A DNA stretch of 64,000 nucleotides from Saccharicrinis sp. (GTDB lineage: Bacteria > Bacteroidota > Bacteroidia > Bacteroidales > Marinilabiliaceae). A program made the translations under genes and the position numbers. How positions within the stretch are numbered: the first letter of the stretch is position 1; each line of letters opens with the position of its first letter. This document shows, piece by piece, positions 1,177 through 10,642 of this stretch. The notes beneath the pieces were generated by a model. That model ran no database searches. It was not told where the DNA came from and was given only the letters and a program-made list of their open reading frames with translations. Where the stretch lies: positions 1-64,000 of the forward strand of contig JAGXIP010000220.1 in NCBI GenBank assembly GCA_024635585.1. Direction: 5' to 3'.

Positions 1177-1226
1177 TTAGAGGCTATAAGAGAAGAATGA
1201 CAACAATTTTCTGTTTAAAAACCCTC

Positions 1227-1298
1227 CCTGCCTGCCGGCACAGGCAGGTAACTCTCCCGTAATTCTACGGGACAACCTGTTCCGAACTCGTTTCGGAA
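1227..1298. repeat. Cluster of three REP-like palindromes
   Basis: Three short palindromes follow each other. An 8-bp stem lies at 1227-1248 (CCTGCCTG / CAGGCAGG). A 6-bp stem lies at 1256-1271 (CCCGTA / TACGGG). A 7-bp stem lies at 1280-1298 (TTCCGAA / TTCGGAA). They sit in the 285-base gap between two co-oriented genes, followed by C/G-rich text containing CCCCCTTTAGGGG. The last palindrome resembles the CCCCGAA/TTCGGGG hairpin at 4661-4679, so these look like members of an interspersed repetitive palindrome family. No T-tract follows, so terminator function is not indicated. Confidence 0.6.
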
Positions 1299-1461
1299 GG
1301 CTCTAAAGGGAGAACCGGAATTCCCCGCAGAGAGCCAGTCCCCCTTTAGGGGTTAGGGGTAATCACGATGGAGTATTATTTAAGTAGAAACTATAATTAA
1401 CGAACAATTTCTTTAATTTAGGGTTAGATGATTTCTACCGTAATAAAACAACAAAATAGCA

Positions 1462-2890: not shown

Positions 2891-3877
2891 TTAGTTCTTC
2901 ATCTTTTTTAGCTCCTCATGAATCTTATCCCAACGATCCTTTTCCATCTTAGGTCCCACAACTTCAATCACGTTACCTGATAACAAAGCAGCTATCTCGC
3001 CGCATTTATCAAGTGGAAGAAGATTTATAAGACCATATAAAAATCCAGCAGCGTATAAATCGCCCGCTCCGGTGGTGTCAATACTATTTGCTGGAATAAC
3101 CCCAACTTCAAAAGCTGTTTTATTCTGCTTTATTAACGACCCTTGCTTACCTAACTTAAGGACGGCAATATTACAATCCTTGGCCATTTCGTCAAGCGCT
3201 TCACGATGCTCTTTTTTGGTAAAGGCCTTGGCTTCTTCTTCGTTGGCAAAAAGGATGTCCACATATTTTGCTACCATTTCCTTTAAAAAAGCAAGGTTAT
3301 CCTCCACCACATTAAAGCTGGCAAGGTCGAGTGAAACAATTAGCTTGGCTTCTTTTGCATACTTAAGCGCTTTTTCAATTAGCGGCTGGTTATATACCAA
3401 ATAGCCTTCGATATGAAAGTGGGTGTAACCCTCAAAAAGTTCTTTTGTTACATCGTCGGCACAGAGTTCAACGGCGGCACCAAGATAGGTGGCAAAAGTT
3501 CGCTCCGAATCGGGACTTATTAAAGCCACTGCCTTCCCTGATTCGTTATCGCTTTCCAACAATTTAGCATCTATATTATTGGCGCTCATATCTTTTTTAA
3601 AGAAAGCGCCCAACACATCCTTTCCTACTTTGCCAAAAAACCCGGTGGCAACCCCCAAACACGAAAGTCCATGTATGGTATTTGCTGCCGAGCCTCCCGA
3701 TGCCATCTCTTGAACGTGATTCGCAATTTCAAGTAATATGGTTGCCGATGTTTCTGCACTGACCAATTGCATACTTCCCTTCGGAAAATTTAATTTTGTT
3801 AACAAATCGTCATTCTCCATCCTGGTTAAAATATCAACCAACGCATTACCCATTCCCAAAACCTTACTCATAATCAA
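2891..3877 (-). CDS. PfkB family kinase, adenosine kinase-like
   Basis: This 328-residue protein has the ribokinase/PfkB fold signatures. The N-terminal GGSAANTIHGLS (near 61-72) is the sugar/nucleoside binding signature, and the C-terminal DTTGAGDLYAAGF (near 266) contains the catalytic Asp and the anion hole. The overall pattern (MGNALVDI start, length about 330, GYL..NQPLIEKAL region) matches the adenosine kinase-like subgroup of Bacteroidota. These enzymes phosphorylate adenosine to AMP with ATP in the cytoplasm for purine salvage. Another ribokinase-family substrate cannot be excluded. The gene stands alone. Upstream on its strand a TATCTTTG (complement of 3919-3926) matches the -7 element, but I found no -33 partner. 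Confidence 0.8.
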   Translation of the reverse strand: MIMSKVLGMGNALVDILTRMENDDLLTKLNFPKGSMQLVSAETSATILLEIANHVQEMASGGSAANTIHGLSCLGVATGFFGKVGKDVLGAFFKKDMSANNIDAKLLESDNESGKAVALISPDSERTFATYLGAAVELCADDVTKELFEGYTHFHIEGYLVYNQPLIEKALKYAKEAKLIVSLDLASFNVVEDNLAFLKEMVAKYVDILFANEEEAKAFTKKEHREALDEMAKDCNIAVLKLGKQGSLIKQNKTAFEVGVIPANSIDTTGAGDLYAAGFLYGLINLLPLDKCGEIAALLSGNVIEVVGPKMEKDRWDKIHEELKKMKN

Positions 3878-3926: not shown

Positions 3927-3957
3927 TTGCATACTTTCAATAATCCTATTACTTTTG
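3927..3957 (+). promoter_or_regulatory. Candidate Bacteroidota promoter toward tRNA-Asn
   Basis: TTG at 3927-3929, a 20-base spacer, then TACTTTTG at 3950-3957 matches the -33/-7 consensus of the Bacteroidota primary sigma factor. It points toward the tRNA-Asn, about 100 bases downstream, which would give a moderately long 5' leader. It overlaps the upstream region of the divergent adenosine kinase gene. Confidence 0.35.
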
Positions 3958-4058: not shown

Positions 4059-4132
4059 TCCTCCTTAGCTCAGCTGGTTAGAGCACCTGACTGTTAATCA
4101 GGGGGTCCTAGGTTCAAGTCCTAGAGGAGGAG
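4059..4132 (+). tRNA. tRNA-Asn (GTT)
   Basis: A complete cloverleaf can be drawn. The acceptor stem is TCCTCCT/AGGAGGA, the D arm GCTC...GAGC, and the anticodon stem CCTGA/TCAGG with loop CTGTTAA (anticodon GTT). The T arm is CTAGG-TTCAAGT-CCTAG, and the discriminator base is G. It is 74 nt, and the CCA end is not encoded. It is followed directly by a hairpin with a T-run and then by two decayed tRNA-like copies of the same unit. Confidence 0.95.
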
Positions 4133-4136
4133 CAAA

Positions 4137-4172
4137 AAAAGAGATTCGATTCATTTCGAGTCTCTTTTTTTA
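4137..4172 (+). terminator. Rho-independent-type terminator of tRNA-Asn
   Basis: GAGATTCGA-TTCATT-TCGAGTCTC forms a hairpin with one internal mismatch, followed by seven T residues. The same element recurs after each of the two downstream tRNA-like copies (around 4280-4316 and 4443-4480), which shows that the duplicated unit was tRNA plus terminator. Confidence 0.75.
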
Positions 4173-4196
4173 TGGGGTAAATTTGTGGGTGATTGG

Positions 4197-4276
4197 AATG
4201 GATTAGCTCAATTGGTTATAGCATCCCGTGATTTTTGATCACGGGAGGGTCCTAGGTTCAAGTCCTAGCGGGGGAG
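4197..4276 (+). pseudogene. Decayed tRNA-like copy (unit 2 of the tandem array)
   Basis: The sequence keeps a recognisable D-arm start (TTAGCTCA.TTGGTTA) and a T arm identical to that of tRNA-Asn (CTAGGTTCAAGTCCTAG). The 5' acceptor strand (AATGGAT) cannot pair with the 3' strand (CGGGGGA). The anticodon arm has become a long hairpin, CCCGTGAT-TTTTG-ATCACGGG. Read as a 5-bp stem with a 7-nt loop it would place TTT at the anticodon, but the broken acceptor stem argues against function. The ORF 4228-4548 laid over it is spurious. Confidence 0.7.
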
Positions 4277-4338
4277 CAAAACAAGAGATTCGATTAATTT
4301 CGGGTCTCTTTTTTTACGGGGTAATTTTGGGGGATTGG

Positions 4339-4438
4339 AGTGGATTAGCTCAGCTTGTTATCTGCCATTCGGCAGACAGGAAGCATCCCGTAATTTTTCA
4401 TCACGGGAGGGTCCTAGGTTCAAGTCCTAGAGGGGGAG
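4339..4438 (+). pseudogene. Decayed tRNA-like copy with insertion in the D arm (unit 3)
   Basis: This copy is closely similar to unit 2, with the same T arm, the same CCCGT..ATTTTT..CACGGG anticodon-arm hairpin and a trailing terminator-like hairpin. It carries about 21 extra bases (4361-4381) in the D arm that contain their own palindrome, TCTGCC-ATTC-GGCAGA. The acceptor stem is also broken. It is best read as a tRNA relic interrupted by a small REP-like palindrome. Confidence 0.65.
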
Positions 4439-4660
4439 CAAAACAAAGAGATTCAATTAATTTTGGGTCTCTTTGTTTGTTGTGTACAAGTTCGGAACTT
4501 CTCTTTGTGTTTTATAATACTCCAATAATTACCAAAATATACCAGTAAACTTAAAAAATATCCTTAGATAACTCCCTTAACTCAGAGCCCAATTGTCCAT
4601 TTTATCCTGTAACTAAAACATTCATGTGTTTATAATTGATTTTTTTTGCCACATAGCCTG

Positions 4661-4733: not shown

Positions 4734-5288
4734 TCACAACTTAAATGGTATTTCGGTTTCCGATAAGGGTTTTAACTTTTTATCTTTTTCTGACAACAAA
4801 ATATCTTCATGGTTTATCTGCCAATCAATTCCCAGTTCCGGATCATCCCAGGCAATACCGGAATCATGCTCTGGTGCATACCAATTGTCCACTTTATACG
4901 AAAATATTGCCGACTTACTTAATACAATAAAAGCATGTGCGAATCCTCTTGGAACAAAAAATTGCCGCTTATTCTCGTCTGACAGCTCCACCGAAACATG
5001 TTTTCCGTAAGTGAGTGAACCCATTCTTAAATCCACTGCCACATCCAGCACTTTGCCCTCAATACAACGAACCAACTTGGCCTGATTATAGGGAGGCCTT
5101 TGAAAATGAAGCCCTCTTAAAACACCATAACTTGAGCGAGATTCGTTGTCCTGTAAGAAATTAACTTCACCAATATTTTCCTCAAAACTTTTTTGGTTAA
5201 ATGATTCGAAGAAGTAACCCCTGGGATCACCAAACACTTTAGGCTCTATGATTACCAGTCCTTCTATTTCTGTCTTAATAAATTGCAT
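4734..5288 (-). CDS. rfbC: dTDP-4-dehydrorhamnose 3,5-epimerase
   Basis: This 184-residue protein is the usual length for RmlC/RfbC cupin epimerases, which convert dTDP-4-keto-6-deoxyglucose to dTDP-4-keto-rhamnose. The N-terminal IIEPKVFGDPRGYFFESFN, the RGLHFQRPPYNQAKLVR active-site segment with its catalytic His (near 60-76), and the FSYKVDNWYAPEHDSGIAWDDP segment near 128-150 are all characteristic. It is the last gene of the minus-strand polysaccharide cluster and implies that rhamnose or another dTDP-6-deoxyhexose enters the polymer. The partner genes rfbA, rfbB and rfbD are not in this window and would have to be elsewhere. Confidence 0.93.
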   Translation of the reverse strand: MQFIKTEIEGLVIIEPKVFGDPRGYFFESFNQKSFEENIGEVNFLQDNESRSSYGVLRGLHFQRPPYNQAKLVRCIEGKVLDVAVDLRMGSLTYGKHVSVELSDENKRQFFVPRGFAHAFIVLSKSAIFSYKVDNWYAPEHDSGIAWDDPELGIDWQINHEDILLSEKDKKLKPLSETEIPFKL

Positions 5289-5344
5289 AATACCTTTTTG
5301 CTAAGGACAATAAATACTGTCCATATTGATTTTTCTTTAATTTC

Positions 5345-6568
5345 TCATCCAACATTACAAATTGGTCCTCTGATATCTGTGTGCCTTAGATTGTATTGCT
5401 GCAAATAATAACAGAGCACCGCAAGATAAATAGCATTTATGCCTGATGAATAAATATGACCTGTTAAAGCTCCAATAAACAAGAATTGACTCACTAAAAA
5501 AAATCCCATTGAATTCTTTCTTGTAAACGAAAACATTGTTTTGAAAAGCAAAATGAAATATAGAATAGTTCCTATAATTCCACCAAATAAGTATAAATCA
5601 ACTAAACCCATCTCTGTAACAGGCATTTCGACAAAAGTGCCACCAATAAAAATGTTATACCATTTCCAATCCTCCAATAACGTAAACACTTTCTGCTCGA
5701 ATAAAAGGCTACGTTTGGAAGTAATGGAATATATTAAACCTTGCTCCTCATAAATTCTATAGAAGAAGCTAAAAATCCCCGAAAAATAGGCGAAAACACA
5801 CAACCCTAGAATCGAAATTCCAATACCTATTAATTTTTGATTTAAAGAGATTTGTTTTATTATAAAAAATATGAAAAAGGAATAGCAAAGCAGGAATAGC
5901 ATGATAGCTTTTGTACCTAAAATTAAAGATGCAAACAACAACAAAATTAGTGGTACGGTATGTTTAAAGTTTTTAGCCTTTAGCGCGGCAGTTCCAAAAT
6001 AAGTAATCCCAATCATCCAGAAAAATGTAATCTCATTTTGAGTGGAAAACGGAGGTTTGAATCCAAAACGATATCCACCATAGGTATGAAAATAGGACAG
6101 ATCAAAAGCAAATGCAACCAATACTATAAGTGCCGATAAAATAAATATACTTTCAAAAGTTATTCTAATATCCTCCCATTTAAAATTTAAAGATTGAATT
6201 GCAACAAACAGGAGCATAGGGAATACATACTTATTTCCTTCTTTAAACAATTGAAATAAATGATTGAAATTCAGAACAGTATCTGTTGAAAATAAATACA
6301 AAGTATAACCAACTATAGGTATAATAGCAAAGCCTAGAATCATTAGTAAAAAAGAGCGCTTAACTCCCTTAACCCATAATAATATGAGAAAAATAATTTC
6401 AACAATTCCTTTACCATAAAAGGAAATACTATTACTAGTATTTAACCCATGTGTTTGGTCAATATAAAAATTAACCATATCCAAAATAAAAAAAAGAGAC
6501 ATGACATATGAAACACCGTACCTCTTTATTGAATTTTTAATACGAACGCTATTTAGATAAGACCTCAT
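5345..6568 (-). CDS. O-antigen polymerase (Wzy)-like membrane protein
   Basis: This is a 407-residue protein with about ten to twelve hydrophobic segments and a larger polar loop near residues 270-310. It has low complexity, is AT-rich and has no enzymatic motif, as is common for Wzy polymerases and O-antigen ligases. It overlaps the upstream glycosyltransferase gene by 20 bases, so the two are likely translationally coupled. Position in a cluster with exporter, flippase and glycosyltransferases supports a role in polymerising repeat units at the periplasmic face of the inner membrane. A second candidate polymerase/ligase (11411-12625) is in the same cluster, so which one polymerises is open. 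A fragment of this gene recurs as a relic near 9.0-9.2 kb. Confidence 0.65.
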   Translation of the reverse strand: MRSYLNSVRIKNSIKRYGVSYVMSLFFILDMVNFYIDQTHGLNTSNSISFYGKGIVEIIFLILLWVKGVKRSFLLMILGFAIIPIVGYTLYLFSTDTVLNFNHLFQLFKEGNKYVFPMLLFVAIQSLNFKWEDIRITFESIFILSALIVLVAFAFDLSYFHTYGGYRFGFKPPFSTQNEITFFWMIGITYFGTAALKAKNFKHTVPLILLLFASLILGTKAIMLFLLCYSFFIFFIIKQISLNQKLIGIGISILGLCVFAYFSGIFSFFYRIYEEQGLIYSITSKRSLLFEQKVFTLLEDWKWYNIFIGGTFVEMPVTEMGLVDLYLFGGIIGTILYFILLFKTMFSFTRKNSMGFFLVSQFLFIGALTGHIYSSGINAIYLAVLCYYLQQYNLRHTDIRGPICNVG

Positions 6569-7640
6569 TGAATAATTCTTCGTATTGGGATACTATTCGT
6601 TCCCAACTATAAAGTTTCTGAATTTTTAAAAAATTTGAATTAACAATATCCACCCTATTGTCTGCTGGGAAATTTATTACTACATCCTTTACGTCTTCCT
6701 TGGTATTAAAATATAAAGCGTCGTTACCTAAGATTGATCTATTAAACAAATTATCATTGGCACAAATAAATGCCCCAGAACCCATTGCTTCCAATAAACT
6801 TGGGTTGGTACCTCCAACTGTATGACCGTGAAAATAAATCTGAGCGTAATATCTTAAGTTATTGAGTATATTAATGTCATATACCCCTCCTACAAATCGA
6901 ATATTTATATTGTGTTTATACTTATCTTTTAAATATTCACCATACTTTGTTTCATGATTACCTATAACAAGAAATGGTTGCCCATTGTTAGCTAAATCAA
7001 TGCCATCCAAAATAATTTCAATACTATTTTCCGGCTCTAATCTGGCTATCAACATACTGTATTGATGGGCTGTAACATTATACACCTTAAGCGATTCAAT
7101 GGAATAATCTTTTATTACATGCGACCCATAGGGAATATAAGTGGACTCCACAGAATATTTATCTTTCAAATATTTTTGAATACCTATTGAGTCTGCCACC
7201 AAATGATGACTATGTTTAACCCCTAATTTTTCTGCGTATAAAAGAAACTGCTGCACTTTTTTTGTATACTTCGTACGTTTCCATTCCAGACCATCCATAT
7301 TAGTAACCACTTTTGTCTTGCTCGGAAGTAGTTTGCCCCAAATACTGCTACTTGTATACCCTAACTGTAGTATAATATCATACCCTCTGTTTCTAGAGTC
7401 AAGAATGCAATTCAAATCATAGATAAACTGACCTGACGTTCCTATCTTCTCTTCTGGATCGTATTTATGAATAATTTTTACGCCTTCCCACTCTTTCTCC
7501 TGATAGGGATGAAAATGGCTGTTGTAAACTGAAACTTCATGCCCTCTATCTACTAAATATTTAGCTACATATTCAGCGAACTGCTCAAATCCTCCGTAAT
7601 AGTTTGGGATGCCGCGTGTGCCTAGAATGGCTATTTTCAT
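6549..7640 (-). CDS. DUF1972-type glycosyltransferase (GT4-like)
   Basis: This 363-residue protein begins MKIAILGTRGIPNYYGGFEQFAEYVA, the hallmark of the DUF1972 N-terminal domain found in rhamnosyl/galactosyl-type transferases of polysaccharide clusters. The C-terminal half has a GT-B donor domain with a HGHTVGGTNPSLLEAMGSGAF segment near 270-290, equivalent to the EX7E region. It should transfer a sugar from a nucleotide donor to the lipid-linked oligosaccharide on the cytoplasmic side. The start overlaps the stop of the preceding gene by 4 bases. A degraded copy of residues near 130-210 occurs at about 9184-9416. The sugar and linkage cannot be deduced. Confidence 0.82.
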   Translation of the reverse strand: MKIAILGTRGIPNYYGGFEQFAEYVAKYLVDRGHEVSVYNSHFHPYQEKEWEGVKIIHKYDPEEKIGTSGQFIYDLNCILDSRNRGYDIILQLGYTSSSIWGKLLPSKTKVVTNMDGLEWKRTKYTKKVQQFLLYAEKLGVKHSHHLVADSIGIQKYLKDKYSVESTYIPYGSHVIKDYSIESLKVYNVTAHQYSMLIARLEPENSIEIILDGIDLANNGQPFLVIGNHETKYGEYLKDKYKHNINIRFVGGVYDINILNNLRYYAQIYFHGHTVGGTNPSLLEAMGSGAFICANDNLFNRSILGNDALYFNTKEDVKDVVINFPADNRVDIVNSNFLKIQKLYSWERIVSQYEELFNEVLSK

Positions 7641-8770
7641 AACGATCTATTGAAATTATTTTGGGTTAGTATATTTTTTATTTTTAATGCAGATTTTTGC
7701 CATGTATATTTGTGACTGTGATCAAGCCCCTTCTTTATATATTTTTCCCGTTCTTCTTCATCAATTATTAACTTGTTAACTTCTTTTACTAATTCTTTTG
7801 TGTTTTTAGGGTCGAAATAGAGTGATGCATCGCCGCAAATTTCCGGCAAACAAGAAGCATTTGATACCACAGTTGGCACTCCGGACTTCATCGCTTCCAA
7901 AGGAGGAAGACCAAATCCTTCAGCAAAAGATGGAAAAACGAATATCTGAGCTGCACCTAATACATTAAGGAGGTCATTATACGTTAAATATCCTAACATC
8001 TTTACTCTCTCTTCCAGTCCTAATTCGACAATAGTTTTATCTATATCAAAGGTTTTGTGATCTTTCTTTCCAATAATAACTAAACTATAATCATATGCTA
8101 AGAATGGCATTGCCTCTAATATTGTTTTTATATTTTTTCTTATATTAACCCTTCCGAGGTAAAGAAAATATTTCTCCGGCAGATCGAACTTTTTTCTGAC
8201 TAATAATTTCTCATCTTGTGTGATTGGCCTGAAGTCATCGGATACACCGTGATATACAACATGAATATCTTTTTTTATTTTAAGGTATTTAGTTATCCTA
8301 TCTTTCTCAGAATTTGAAATTGTTATAATAGAATGTGCAAATTGTGCCGTAAATCTCATTAAACTGTAAATTCTCCTTTCGACATAACTAAAATAATTAG
8401 GGTAATCAAAAAATAGAAAATCGTGTATGAATGCAACGTTCTTTGTTCTTTTATAAAAAATGACTGGGCTGAAATTTTGATACAGACAAACATCGACACC
8501 TAACTTGTCTGCATAATATGGCATCACAAACATATTGCTAATAAAATTAAGGGTACTAGGTATGTAAACTAAAGTAATGTTTGTCTTTTGTCCAATTTTA
8601 GATAAGATCTCATGTTCATACTTTTGATCCATTCTGCGAAGAAAAAGGTAAACTTGATTATCCGATATTTGATGTATAAATTGATCTACTAAATTACGTA
8701 CAACTACTTTGCCACTGGGGTTTCCATTAAAATACCATTTAGCGTCAATGCCTATTTTCCTCATTAACAT
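7637..8770 (-). CDS. Glycosyltransferase family 4 protein
   Basis: This 377-residue GT-B protein has the GT4 C-terminal signature FAEGFGLPPLEAMKSGVPTVVSNASCLPEI (near 285-315), containing the EX7E motif that contacts the donor sugar-nucleotide. YLGRVNIRKNI near 210 is the start of the donor-binding domain. It overlaps the downstream DUF1972 gene by 4 bases. Either of two adjacent ATGs (8770 or 8764) could be the start. Upstream lies a 735-base non-coding stretch, so this gene may be transcribed through from the cluster or may have its own start. Specificity is unknown. Confidence 0.83.
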   Translation of the reverse strand: MLMRKIGIDAKWYFNGNPSGKVVVRNLVDQFIHQISDNQVYLFLRRMDQKYEHEILSKIGQKTNITLVYIPSTLNFISNMFVMPYYADKLGVDVCLYQNFSPVIFYKRTKNVAFIHDFLFFDYPNYFSYVERRIYSLMRFTAQFAHSIITISNSEKDRITKYLKIKKDIHVVYHGVSDDFRPITQDEKLLVRKKFDLPEKYFLYLGRVNIRKNIKTILEAMPFLAYDYSLVIIGKKDHKTFDIDKTIVELGLEERVKMLGYLTYNDLLNVLGAAQIFVFPSFAEGFGLPPLEAMKSGVPTVVSNASCLPEICGDASLYFDPKNTKELVKEVNKLIIDEEEREKYIKKGLDHSHKYTWQKSALKIKNILTQNNFNRSL

Positions 8771-9505
8771 ATAAAATATCGATGAACAGATAAGAAAATT
8801 TCGGAAGGAAAATTCTAATTATCTGCGTACTTAGATTGGTATTAAACATAGATATAACGAATTAAATATCAAAACAAACAATGTGAGATTAAAGAACAAT
8901 ATAATAAATTGTTTAATATTTAATTTATTTAAAAAGAAATCAAAATATTCCGTGATAAATTTCCAATATAATTATCAGTATTTACTGAAAACAAATATAA
9001 ACCATAACCGAATATGCGTATATTACTAGAGCGTGTAATCATTAGTAAAAAAGGGCGGTAACTCCTTTAAACCAGAGTAATATGAGAAAAATAATTCCTA
9101 CTATTCTCTTTCTATAAAAGGAAATACTATTACGAGTATTTAACCCATTTGTTTCATCAATATAAAAAGTGACCACATCCTAAATAATTTCAAATCTATT
9201 TTCCGACTCTAATCTGGCTATCAACATACTGTATTGATGGGCTGTAACATTATACTTCTTAAGCGACTCAAAGGAATATTCTTTTATTACATGAGACCCA
9301 TAGGGAATATAGGTGGACTCCACAGCATATTTATCTTTCAAATATTTTTGAATACCCATTGAGTCTGCCACCAAATGGTGACTATATTTAACACCTAATT
9401 TGTTGGCATAAAAGAAACTTCATAACCTTTTAAAATATCCGATAAATTATTTTTTCGACTTATTTATTAACAACAAAACTTATTATAATTAAAATTATAG
9501 AGAAC
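8771..9505. other. 735-base gene-free gap within the polysaccharide cluster, holding a relic
   Basis: The first 200 bases (8771-8972) are extremely AT-rich, and I recognise nothing in them. From about 8973 to 9416 lies the chimeric relic described separately. The remaining bases to 9505 are AT-rich and featureless. Confidence 0.6.
8973..9416 (-). pseudogene. Chimeric relic: wzy fragment joined to DUF1972 glycosyltransferase fragment
   Basis: Bases about 8973-9187 resemble 6285-6489 (inside the wzy-like gene). Bases 9177-9416 resemble 7005-7250 (inside the DUF1972 glycosyltransferase). Order and orientation are the same as in the intact genes, but about 526 bases between the two blocks are missing. 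The join falls where both parent genes contain ATCCAAAATAA (6479-6489 and 7005-7015); the relic has ATCCTAAATAA there. The 64-residue ORF at 9180-9374 is a piece of the glycosyltransferase (MVADSMGIQKYLKDKYAVES versus ...LVADSIGIQKYLKDKYSVES). The relic has no usable start or catalytic region and is not functional. Confidence 0.85.
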
Positions 9506-10642
9506 TCAAATTTGCAAGTTCAATAGCTCATTTATAAAGCCCTCAATCTTATTACAATATACTCCCTCTGAAAAATCATTACTAGCTCTTTTTAAGGCAT
9601 TCTCACTTAACCTTCTATAAATCTCTGTATCTTCATTTATTTTTCGCACAATCACTTTAAATCCCGCTTCATCATCAAACAAAAATCCATCCAATCCGTT
9701 TTTTATTAACTCTTTAGTACCGCCACTAGCCAAACCTATTACAGGAATTCCATTAGCCATTGCCTCGATAGTAACCCTACCAAAAGCTTCAAACTTAGAA
9801 AACATCAAAAGCAAATCAATTTGATTATAAATCGCGCTTGTATCGGTCATAAAACCATGAAAAACCAATTGACTTGCTACTCCATTAATGGTTGCAAAAT
9901 CAGAAATTTGCTTTAAATACACACTTTCACCATCTCCAAACAAATGAAGCTTCCAATTCTTATTAGACTTTAAAAATGACAATAAAAAGGAAACAGATTC
10001 AAGCTGTCCTTTTAAAGGATGAATATACCCAACAATCCCGAAATTAAGTTGCGAAAAATCAGGATTTCTTGAAAGAGATAATTCATCATTTATCTTAATA
10101 CCATTGTAAACTACTCGTGTTTTTGTCTTTTCAGTTTTTACTGGCAGAACATGCTCTTTTACTGTATGCGAATTAAAAACAACACCATTACTGGAATTCA
10201 AATACCATTTTTTAAATCTATTTCCAAAAAACGGATAAAAACTGTAATCCAAGTCACCAAATTCACGGACATGAGAAACATGCGGGACTTTTAAAAGTTT
10301 CGCAATTATCCAACCAATATTCTCCATAGAACTATTAGAGTAAATCAAATCAGGCTTAAATCGAATAGCTTTAATCAAAATAAAAGGAAAAATGAAAAAA
10401 TTCAGTAGTTGCAGTAAAGGAAATATCAAGTATTTCAATTTCCTTCTAAAAAAAAACACAGTTGCAAAATATGGGAGTGTGCAAAAAGAAACACCTTCCT
10501 TTTTAAACAAATCTCCCAAACTGTTTGTCAAAGGAAAAAAAACCAACACATCGTTAGAACAGTCAAAGAACTTCATCAAAGTTAAAAGGGATTTATTCGC
10601 CCCATACGGTTGACCATTATGAGCAAAAAATAACACTCGCAT
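9506..10642 (-). CDS. Glycosyltransferase family 4 protein
   Basis: This is a 378-residue GT-B fold protein. The N-terminal domain begins MRVLFFAHNGQPYGANKSLL, the typical glycine-containing loop near the acceptor site. The donor domain contains FGIVGYIHPLKGQ near 205 and FEAFGRVTIEAMANGIPVIGLASGGTKE near 285-312, the EX7E-type donor motif. A hydrophobic patch near 65-90 may associate with the membrane, where the lipid-linked acceptor sits. It is separated by 5 bases from the upstream GT2 gene, consistent with co-transcription. Confidence 0.83.
   Translation of the reverse strand: MRVLFFAHNGQPYGANKSLLTLMKFFDCSNDVLVFFPLTNSLGDLFKKEGVSFCTLPYFATVFFFRRKLKYLIFPLLQLLNFFIFPFILIKAIRFKPDLIYSNSSMENIGWIIAKLLKVPHVSHVREFGDLDYSFYPFFGNRFKKWYLNSSNGVVFNSHTVKEHVLPVKTEKTKTRVVYNGIKINDELSLSRNPDFSQLNFGIVGYIHPLKGQLESVSFLLSFLKSNKNWKLHLFGDGESVYLKQISDFATINGVASQLVFHGFMTDTSAIYNQIDLLLMFSKFEAFGRVTIEAMANGIPVIGLASGGTKELIKNGLDGFLFDDEAGFKVIVRKINEDTEIYRRLSENALKRASNDFSEGVYCNKIEGFINELLNLQI

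What the first reader, a model, noticed from the sequence alone, without database searches (positions are those of the whole stretch)
4059..4480. Tandem tRNA-Asn unit with two decayed tRNA-like copies sharing T arm and terminator
Each of three consecutive ~140-base units has a tRNA-like body with an identical T arm (CTAGGTTCAAGTCCTAG) and a GAGATTC..TCTC hairpin with T-run. Units 2 and 3 lost the acceptor pairing but kept, or gained, a long anticodon-arm hairpin (CCCGTGAT..ATCACGGG). The selective survival of T arm, hairpin and terminator could be recent decay, or could mean these tRNA-like transcripts are used for something else.
Basis: seen in the sequence. Interest (0 to 1): 0.6.

Follow-up and report, generated by a model that had tools for sequence, protein, structure and literature searches.

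The report
Dead tRNA tails of endonuclease cassettes
Behind a working asparagine tRNA gene in a Bacteroidota bacterium sit two broken copies that keep the gene's back half and stop signal but have a rebuilt anticodon hairpin, and the same broken-copy design recurs behind at least ten kinds of tRNA gene in related bacteria, usually with a small DNA-cutting (GIY-YIG) enzyme gene in front of it, so they are probably the leftover tails of a selfish cassette that targets tRNA genes.

Summary
An intact tRNA-Asn (4059-4133) is followed by two tandem copies that keep the D arm, an identical 17-nt T arm and the terminator. They lack 5' acceptor pairing (1/7 and 2/7 pairs against 7/7), and their anticodon arm is a longer hairpin (TCCCGTGATTTTTGATCACGGGA).

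This is not random decay. Relatives carry the same layout behind Val, Met, Lys, Asn, Pro, Phe, Thr, Ala, Tyr and Leu tRNA genes: intact tRNA + terminator, then an 80-100 aa GIY-YIG endonuclease ORF, then a hairpin in place of the anticodon arm, then the 3' half of the same tRNA and its terminator. Of 52 GIY-YIG ORFs found by protein similarity alone, 40 are flanked by such direct repeats (0 of 20 control ORFs). The hairpin covaries. ORF-less tail arrays also exist at Asn, Thr, Lys and Pro genes.

The Asn locus is syntenic across the genus: most relatives lack tails; the closest has at least five with a near-identical hairpin.

Best reading: ORF-less, tandemly amplified tails of a tRNA-associated homing-type cassette. 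Mobility, cleavage and the ORF loss here are inferred. The open-access papers searched describe only phage SegB as a near analogue.

The parts
4059..4133 (+). intact tRNA-Asn (anticodon GTT), unit 1
   Evidence: ARAGORN; Rfam RF00005 70.4 bits
4134..4171 (+). intrinsic terminator of unit 1 (16-base arms and T run)
   Evidence: inverted repeat I3; fold -18.1 kcal/mol
4172..4203 (+). sequence replacing the 5' acceptor strand of unit 2; ends ..ATT GGA ATG GAT TAG, possibly residual 3' codons of a lost ORF (weak)
   Evidence: alignment with unit 3; comparison with ORF ends of cassettes is by eye
4204..4222 (+). D-arm-like sequence of unit 2
   Evidence: Rfam tRNA match 4204-4268, 25.9 bits
4224..4246 (+). 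hairpin in place of the anticodon arm, unit 2 (TCCCGTGA-TTTTTGA-TCACGGGA)
   Evidence: same motif in relatives
4252..4268 (+). T arm of unit 2, identical to unit 1
4278..4315 (+). terminator of unit 2
4316..4345 (+). sequence replacing the 5' acceptor strand of unit 3 (ends ..ATT GGA GTG GAT TAG)
   Evidence: direct repeat D2 with unit 2
4346..4384 (+). D-arm-like sequence of unit 3 with a ~20-base insert holding the palindrome TCTGCCATTCGGCAGA (4361-4376)
4386..4408 (+). hairpin in place of the anticodon arm, unit 3 (one A.C mismatch)
4414..4430 (+). T arm of unit 3, identical to unit 1
4441..4478 (+). terminator of unit 3
   Evidence: inverted repeat I4; fold -19.7 kcal/mol
2891..3877 (-). 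sugar/adenosine-kinase-like gene (named by eye from its sequence), conserved neighbour that identifies the orthologous tRNA-Asn locus in relatives
   Evidence: tblastn hits beside tRNA-Asn in same-genus genomes and in other genera and families

Best explanation
Units 2 and 3 are ORF-less tail units of a selfish cassette that lives behind tRNA genes. The complete cassette in relatives is a GIY-YIG endonuclease ORF followed by a dead copy of the host tRNA: the anticodon arm is replaced by a longer hairpin, and the 3' half and terminator of the same tRNA are kept. Proposed working: (1) the endonuclease cuts the tRNA gene or its immediate flank (inferred); (2) break repair uses the tRNA 3' half and terminator as a homology arm, so the cassette ends up behind a still functional tRNA (inferred from the direct repeats); (3) the hairpin makes the tail useless as a tRNA and probably uncuttable, and the terminator ends the ORF transcript (inferred); (4) the repeated arms let the unit multiply in tandem by unequal recombination (array structure shown, process inferred); (5) in this genome the ORF was lost, or the unit always was a non-autonomous derivative, and the tail was duplicated to two copies (inferred).
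For: Same tail architecture with an ORF: Val cassettes in Carboxylicivirga marina and Carboxylicivirga sp. M1479 and in same-genus genome G002; the ORFs are GIY-YIG by Pfam (E 8.8e-16 and 3.3e-14). Among GIY-YIG ORFs found by protein similarity alone, 40 of 52 are flanked by direct repeats of the tRNA 3' half/terminator against 0 of 20 control ORFs; 46 of 52 have such a repeat or a tRNA within 400 nt upstream; ten tRNA isotypes appear among tRNAs found upstream of all cassettes examined. Motif residues are kept: Y 54/55, Y and G 55/55, R 55/55, H 55/55, E 54/55, so the enzymes look active. Tail hairpins: stem of at least 6 bp in 29 of 39 tails against 9.5% of shuffles; stem pairs not fixed by the search pattern pair at 75% and 70% against about 55% and 47% when re-paired at random, never reached in 2000 shuffles. 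ORF-less tail arrays at Asn (G006; G551), Thr (G006, G002), Lys (G002) and Pro (G347). Orthologous Asn locus: no tails in G001, G003, G004, G007, G008 and G009; at least five in the closest relative G006 (kinase 89% identical), hairpin one base different. Precedent: phage SegB, a GIY-YIG homing endonuclease in a tRNA region, drives tandem amplification of tRNA plus truncated segB with microhomology between the tRNA 5' end and the segB 3' end (PMC13096335; PMC2988022).
Against: No GIY-YIG ORF lies in the window units, and none of cassette type was found in this roughly 90% complete genome. No ORF-bearing cassette with the same Asn tail was found in the genus, so ORF loss is not shown directly. 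About a quarter of the cassettes lack a clear hairpin, and Phe cassettes carry it in the T arm. Hairpin-bearing partial copies also lie upstream of real tRNAs without an ORF, which this model explains only partly. Cleavage and mobility are untested.
Confidence: 0.6

Rival explanations
1. Plain tandem duplication of the tRNA-Asn gene followed by decay; T arm and terminator survive by recency or gene conversion with unit 1.
For: Genus relatives carry 1-3 tandem intact tRNA-Asn genes at the same locus. Unit 2 keeps 91% identity to unit 1 over the 87-base T-arm/terminator segment.
Against: The copies gained a longer hairpin, and the same hairpin class appears in dead copies of Val, Met, Lys, Thr, Pro and other tRNAs with covariation; the 5' acceptor strand is replaced, not point-mutated; the same tails follow GIY-YIG ORFs.
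Confidence: 0.15
2. The units are expressed non-coding RNAs (tRNA mimics, decoys or sponges) kept for an RNA-level function, as proposed for the pseudo-tRNA tRNAOther of Bacillus cereus.
For: Terminators and T arms are intact; unit 2 with its terminator folds better than shuffles (z -3.4); a TAnnTTTG box, the Bacteroidota -7 type, precedes each unit (4178, 4322); a pseudo-tRNA with an effect on its host has precedent (PMC3399842).
Against: TAnnTTTG is no more frequent in the window than by chance (95 against 90); several genus members lack the units; copy number and 5' part vary freely; unit 3 breaks a hairpin pair.
Confidence: 0.12
3. A dispersed palindromic repeat (REP/MITE-like, TCCCGT..ACGGGA) inserted into tandem tRNA copies, unrelated to the endonuclease.
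For: Palindromes with the same TCCCGT..ACGGGA stem occur outside tRNA loci in G000, G002 and G006 (window 1255-1272); unit 3 and other tails carry further palindromic inserts.
Against: In the tails the hairpin almost always sits in the anticodon arm and follows the GIY-YIG stop codon; inner stem or loop bases sometimes keep the isotype's own letters (Asn TGA/TCA, Met GAT/ATC, Thr TGTAA; by eye), so it looks rebuilt in place rather than inserted whole.
Confidence: 0.1
4. Attachment-site remnants of a tyrosine-recombinase element (island or phage) that uses the tRNA-Asn 3' end.
For: Duplicated tRNA 3' ends are typical of such sites (established knowledge).
Against: No integrase or island separates the units; the duplicated part includes D arm, altered anticodon arm and terminator; the repeats flank only a GIY-YIG ORF or nothing.
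Confidence: 0.03

Closest known systems
Phage T4/T6 SegB (free-standing GIY-YIG homing endonuclease in a tRNA cluster; PMC2988022, PMC13096335)
   Same: GIY-YIG endonuclease gene beside tRNA genes; microhomology between tRNA and the 3' end of the endonuclease gene; tandem amplification of tRNA plus truncated endonuclease.
   Different: Here chromosomal, in Bacteroidota, each unit ending in a dead copy of the same tRNA with a rebuilt anticodon hairpin and its own terminator; ten isotypes; ORF-less arrays.
tRNAOther, the pseudo-tRNA of Bacillus cereus (PMC3399842)
   Same: A tRNA-like gene not used in translation.
   Different: [quoted passage not shown] the units here lack acceptor pairing, are tandem tails and belong to a recurrent cassette layout.
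Integrative elements with duplicated tRNA 3' ends
   Same: A functional tRNA is kept upstream and a 3' fragment is duplicated downstream.
   Different: No integrase; unit of roughly 140-400 bases; altered anticodon hairpin; terminator included in the repeat.
REP/BIME-type dispersed palindromes
   Same: Short GC-rich palindromes between genes, with a similar stem in the same genomes.
   Different: Fixed position inside tRNA-like tails and linked to GIY-YIG ORFs.

Membership tests
tRNA-Asn gene (units 2, 3) | paired acceptor stem and anticodon arm of a tRNA | tested here: not met
   1/7 and 2/7 acceptor pairs; anticodon arm replaced by an 8-bp hairpin; below the Rfam cut-off
GIY-YIG tRNA-tail cassette (tail unit) | 3' half and terminator of the upstream tRNA repeated downstream | tested here: met
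   direct repeats of 87 bases
GIY-YIG tRNA-tail cassette (tail unit) | anticodon arm replaced by a TCCCG..CGGGA-type hairpin | tested here: met
   shared with cassettes of relatives
GIY-YIG tRNA-tail cassette (complete) | GIY-YIG ORF between tRNA and tail | tested here: not met
   no such ORF in the units; no cassette-type GIY-YIG in the genome
Homing endonuclease element | site-specific cleavage and transfer into empty sites | not testable with these tools
   only indirect: presence/absence at an orthologous locus; catalytic-motif residues conserved in relatives' ORFs
Functional pseudo-tRNA / sRNA | stable transcript with a phenotype | not testable with these tools
   no expression data available

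The most novel reading that the evidence does not exclude
Bacteroidota carry a so far undescribed class of minimal selfish elements that colonise tRNA genes of at least ten isotypes. Each is a GIY-YIG endonuclease plus a dead host-tRNA copy whose anticodon arm is rebuilt into a protective or recognition hairpin; ORF-less satellites, as in this window, are multiplied in trans.
Probability: 0.35. Interest if true: 0.8.

Novelty: new variant of a known kind. Interest (0 to 1): 0.6.

Why it matters
If right, tRNA genes in many Bacteroidota are targeted by tiny endonuclease cassettes that spare the host by leaving a working tRNA and mark their own copy with an altered anticodon arm. That would be a testable chromosomal counterpart of phage SegB. 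It would explain GIY-YIG ORFs and tRNA pseudogene arrays beside tRNA genes, and why contigs in several of these assemblies end inside such arrays.

Tried and rejected
Rfam and ARAGORN on the window: no other RNA family; a Plastid-ycf2 hit on the minus strand of the tRNA is below that family's cut-off and only mirrors the tRNA. Blastn of the units against phage records: no match. Own-genome searches for further copies, stand-alone GIY-YIG and other weak tRNA-like genes: no further unit of this kind; two other sub-threshold tRNA hits were not read. Promoter boxes upstream of the units: present but at chance frequency. Palindrome in unit 3 elsewhere in the window: none. Tyrosine-recombinase att-site reading rejected: no integrase and wrong repeat content. 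Ten literature searches, limited to open-access papers, found no description of these cassettes; that is absence in one library, not proof of novelty.

Full report
What is there. The window belongs to a Bacteroidota assembly of 310 contigs (phylum inferred from its relatives). At 4059-4133 lies an ordinary tRNA-Asn with an intrinsic terminator (4134-4171). Two tandem copies follow. Both keep a D-arm-like stretch, an identical T arm and a terminator. Both lack the 5' acceptor strand (1/7 and 2/7 pairs), which is replaced by sequence the two copies share with each other but not with unit 1. In both, the anticodon arm is a new, longer hairpin: TCCCGTGA-TTTTTGA-TCACGGGA in unit 2, and in unit 3 a version with one mismatched pair. 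Unit 3 also carries a palindromic insert in its D loop.

It is not alone. Searching the family for the hairpin brought up the same hairpin in dead copies of tRNA-Val, tRNA-Lys and tRNA-Asn. Most of the Val copies are preceded by an 82-83 aa ORF whose stop codon is the TAA or TAG in the tRNA-like sequence; Pfam calls it GIY-YIG (E 8.8e-16 and 3.3e-14). The complete layout is: intact tRNA + terminator, GIY-YIG ORF, hairpin in place of the anticodon arm, 3' half of the same tRNA + the same kind of terminator, often in tandem. Named examples are Carboxylicivirga marina and Carboxylicivirga sp. M1479; two more distant hits (an Ignavibacteriae MAG, whose ORF is interrupted, and Candidatus Chrysopegis kryptomonas) have the same direct-repeat layout. 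In one Lys case the ORF reads through the tail (..LLKHAQLVEHPDLSGVVLGSNPS, L084).

How strong is the link. GIY-YIG ORFs of 60-130 aa were taken from the family by protein similarity alone, without using the tails. Of 52 that could be judged, 40 are flanked by direct repeats of the upstream and downstream flanks (in most, by inspection, the tRNA 3' half and terminator; a few are other repeats) and 46 have such a repeat or a tRNA within 400 bases upstream; 20 control ORFs from all examined loci gave none. tRNAs found upstream of all cassettes examined are of ten isotypes: Met, Val, Asn, Lys, Phe, Thr, Pro, Ala, Tyr, Leu. The motif residues are nearly invariant in 55 aligned proteins. After the stop codon a perfect stem of at least 6 bp occurs in 29 of 39 tails against 9.5% of shuffles. 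In 135 hairpins, base pairs not fixed by the search pattern still pair (75% and 70% at the first two inner positions) far more than after re-pairing at random (about 55% and 47%). That list includes chance hits, and related sequences are not independent, so these figures are indicative.

Spread. The looser pattern TCCCGN{3,22}CGGGANGGTC is found in 154 of 393 genomes of the order (it includes chance hits; genomes with many matches, such as G006, G060 and G153 with 16, 25 and 18, have 0-1 in the reversed-pattern control). A strict version is found in 4 of 297 genomes sampled across the phylum, with no control match. One viral contig (L184) carries a similar ORF end and tail.

ORF-less arrays like the window's exist elsewhere: five clear tails behind two tRNA-Asn genes in same-genus G006, where the contig ends inside the array and another contig begins in it; tRNA-Thr tails in a Thr-Tyr-Gly tRNA operon in G006 and G002; Lys in G002; a single Asn unit of the same build in another genome of the class (G551, L190/L194). 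Hairpin-bearing partial copies also occur upstream of real tRNAs, where they keep the 5' half (L149 has both sides with the same hairpin). I cannot fully explain these.

The locus in relatives. A kinase-like gene (window 2891-3877) lies next to tRNA-Asn in same-genus genomes and in other genera and families, so the locus is orthologous. G001, G003, G004, G007, G008 and G009 have one to three intact tRNA-Asn genes and no tails. G006, the closest relative by this gene (89%), has tails whose hairpin differs by one base from unit 2 and by one from unit 3. The tails are therefore lineage-specific and probably date from before the G000/G006 split.

Mechanism. Shown: repeated tRNA 3' halves and terminators flanking an endonuclease ORF; replaced anticodon arm; tandem arrays; presence/absence at an orthologous locus. 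Inferred: that the enzyme cuts tRNA genes, that repair through the repeated arm places the cassette behind a working tRNA, that the hairpin protects the tail or marks it, and that in this window the ORF was lost (or the units are satellites). A precedent is phage SegB, which sits in a tRNA region and drives tandem amplification of tRNA plus a truncated segB, with microhomology between tRNA and the 3' end of the gene (PMC13096335; PMC2988022). The end of the 5' segment of units 2 and 3 (ATT GGA ATG GAT TAG; ATT GGA GTG GAT TAG) resembles Val-cassette ORF ends (ATT AAT GGC GAT TAA; ATC AAT GGC GAT TAG), but this is weak and by eye.

What weakens it. The window has no ORF and its genome no cassette-type GIY-YIG gene, although the assembly is only about 90% complete. 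No Asn cassette with exactly this tail and an ORF was found. The same TCCCGT..ACGGGA stem occurs in palindromes outside tRNA loci in G000, G002 and G006, so the hairpin may have a second source. Expression could not be tested.

Verdict. A real, non-random feature; most likely ORF-less tails of a tRNA-associated GIY-YIG cassette (0.6). The general kind, a free-standing GIY-YIG element beside tRNA genes, is known from phages. The chromosomal tail-and-hairpin design was not found in the literature searched.

Noticed in passing
L144, L145, L147, L149, L152, L153, L156, L160, L161, L162: Arrays of 5'-type dead tRNA copies (5' half + TCCCG..CGGGA hairpin + GGTC, then other sequence; spacings about 69-124 bases) upstream of real tRNA genes, some with a GIY-YIG ORF downstream; L149 has both sides with the same hairpin.
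   Followed up: partly
L211 532-1345 (minus strand), L213 344-698: tRNA-Thr tails with hairpin TCCCGTTGTGTAACACGGGA, in up to six copies (mostly 117-base spacing), inside a Thr-Tyr-Gly tRNA operon in G006 and G002.
   Followed up: partly
window 1225-1310: Intergenic cluster of palindromes (CCTGCCTGCCGGCACAGGCAGG, TCCCGTAATTCTACGGGA, TTCCGAACTCGTTTCGGAA) resembling dispersed repeats in G002; the TCCCGT..ACGGGA stem is the same as in the tRNA tails.
   Followed up: partly
window 4332-4440, minus strand: The antisense strand of unit 3 folds much better than shuffles (z -6.4): the mismatch in its hairpin becomes a G-U pair and the palindromic insert pairs.
   Followed up: no
window 3950-3957, 4178-4185, 4322-4329: A TAnnTTTG box (Bacteroidota -7 type) precedes the tRNA and each copy, but such boxes are at chance frequency in the window.
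   Followed up: partly
L184 (IMG/VR contig), near base 8264-8288 minus: A GIY-YIG-like ORF end followed by a hairpin tail (AGCATCCCGTTACAACGGGAGGGTC) on a contig classed as viral.
   Followed up: no
L074/L064, L083, L101, L149: Tails often carry further palindromes in the T arm, acceptor or D arm, as if several tRNA arms were being rebuilt into longer hairpins.
   Followed up: no
window 4734-10642: Minus-strand genes that read like a dTDP-sugar epimerase, a membrane polymerase and several glycosyltransferases: a surface polysaccharide cluster seems to start just downstream of the units.
   Followed up: no
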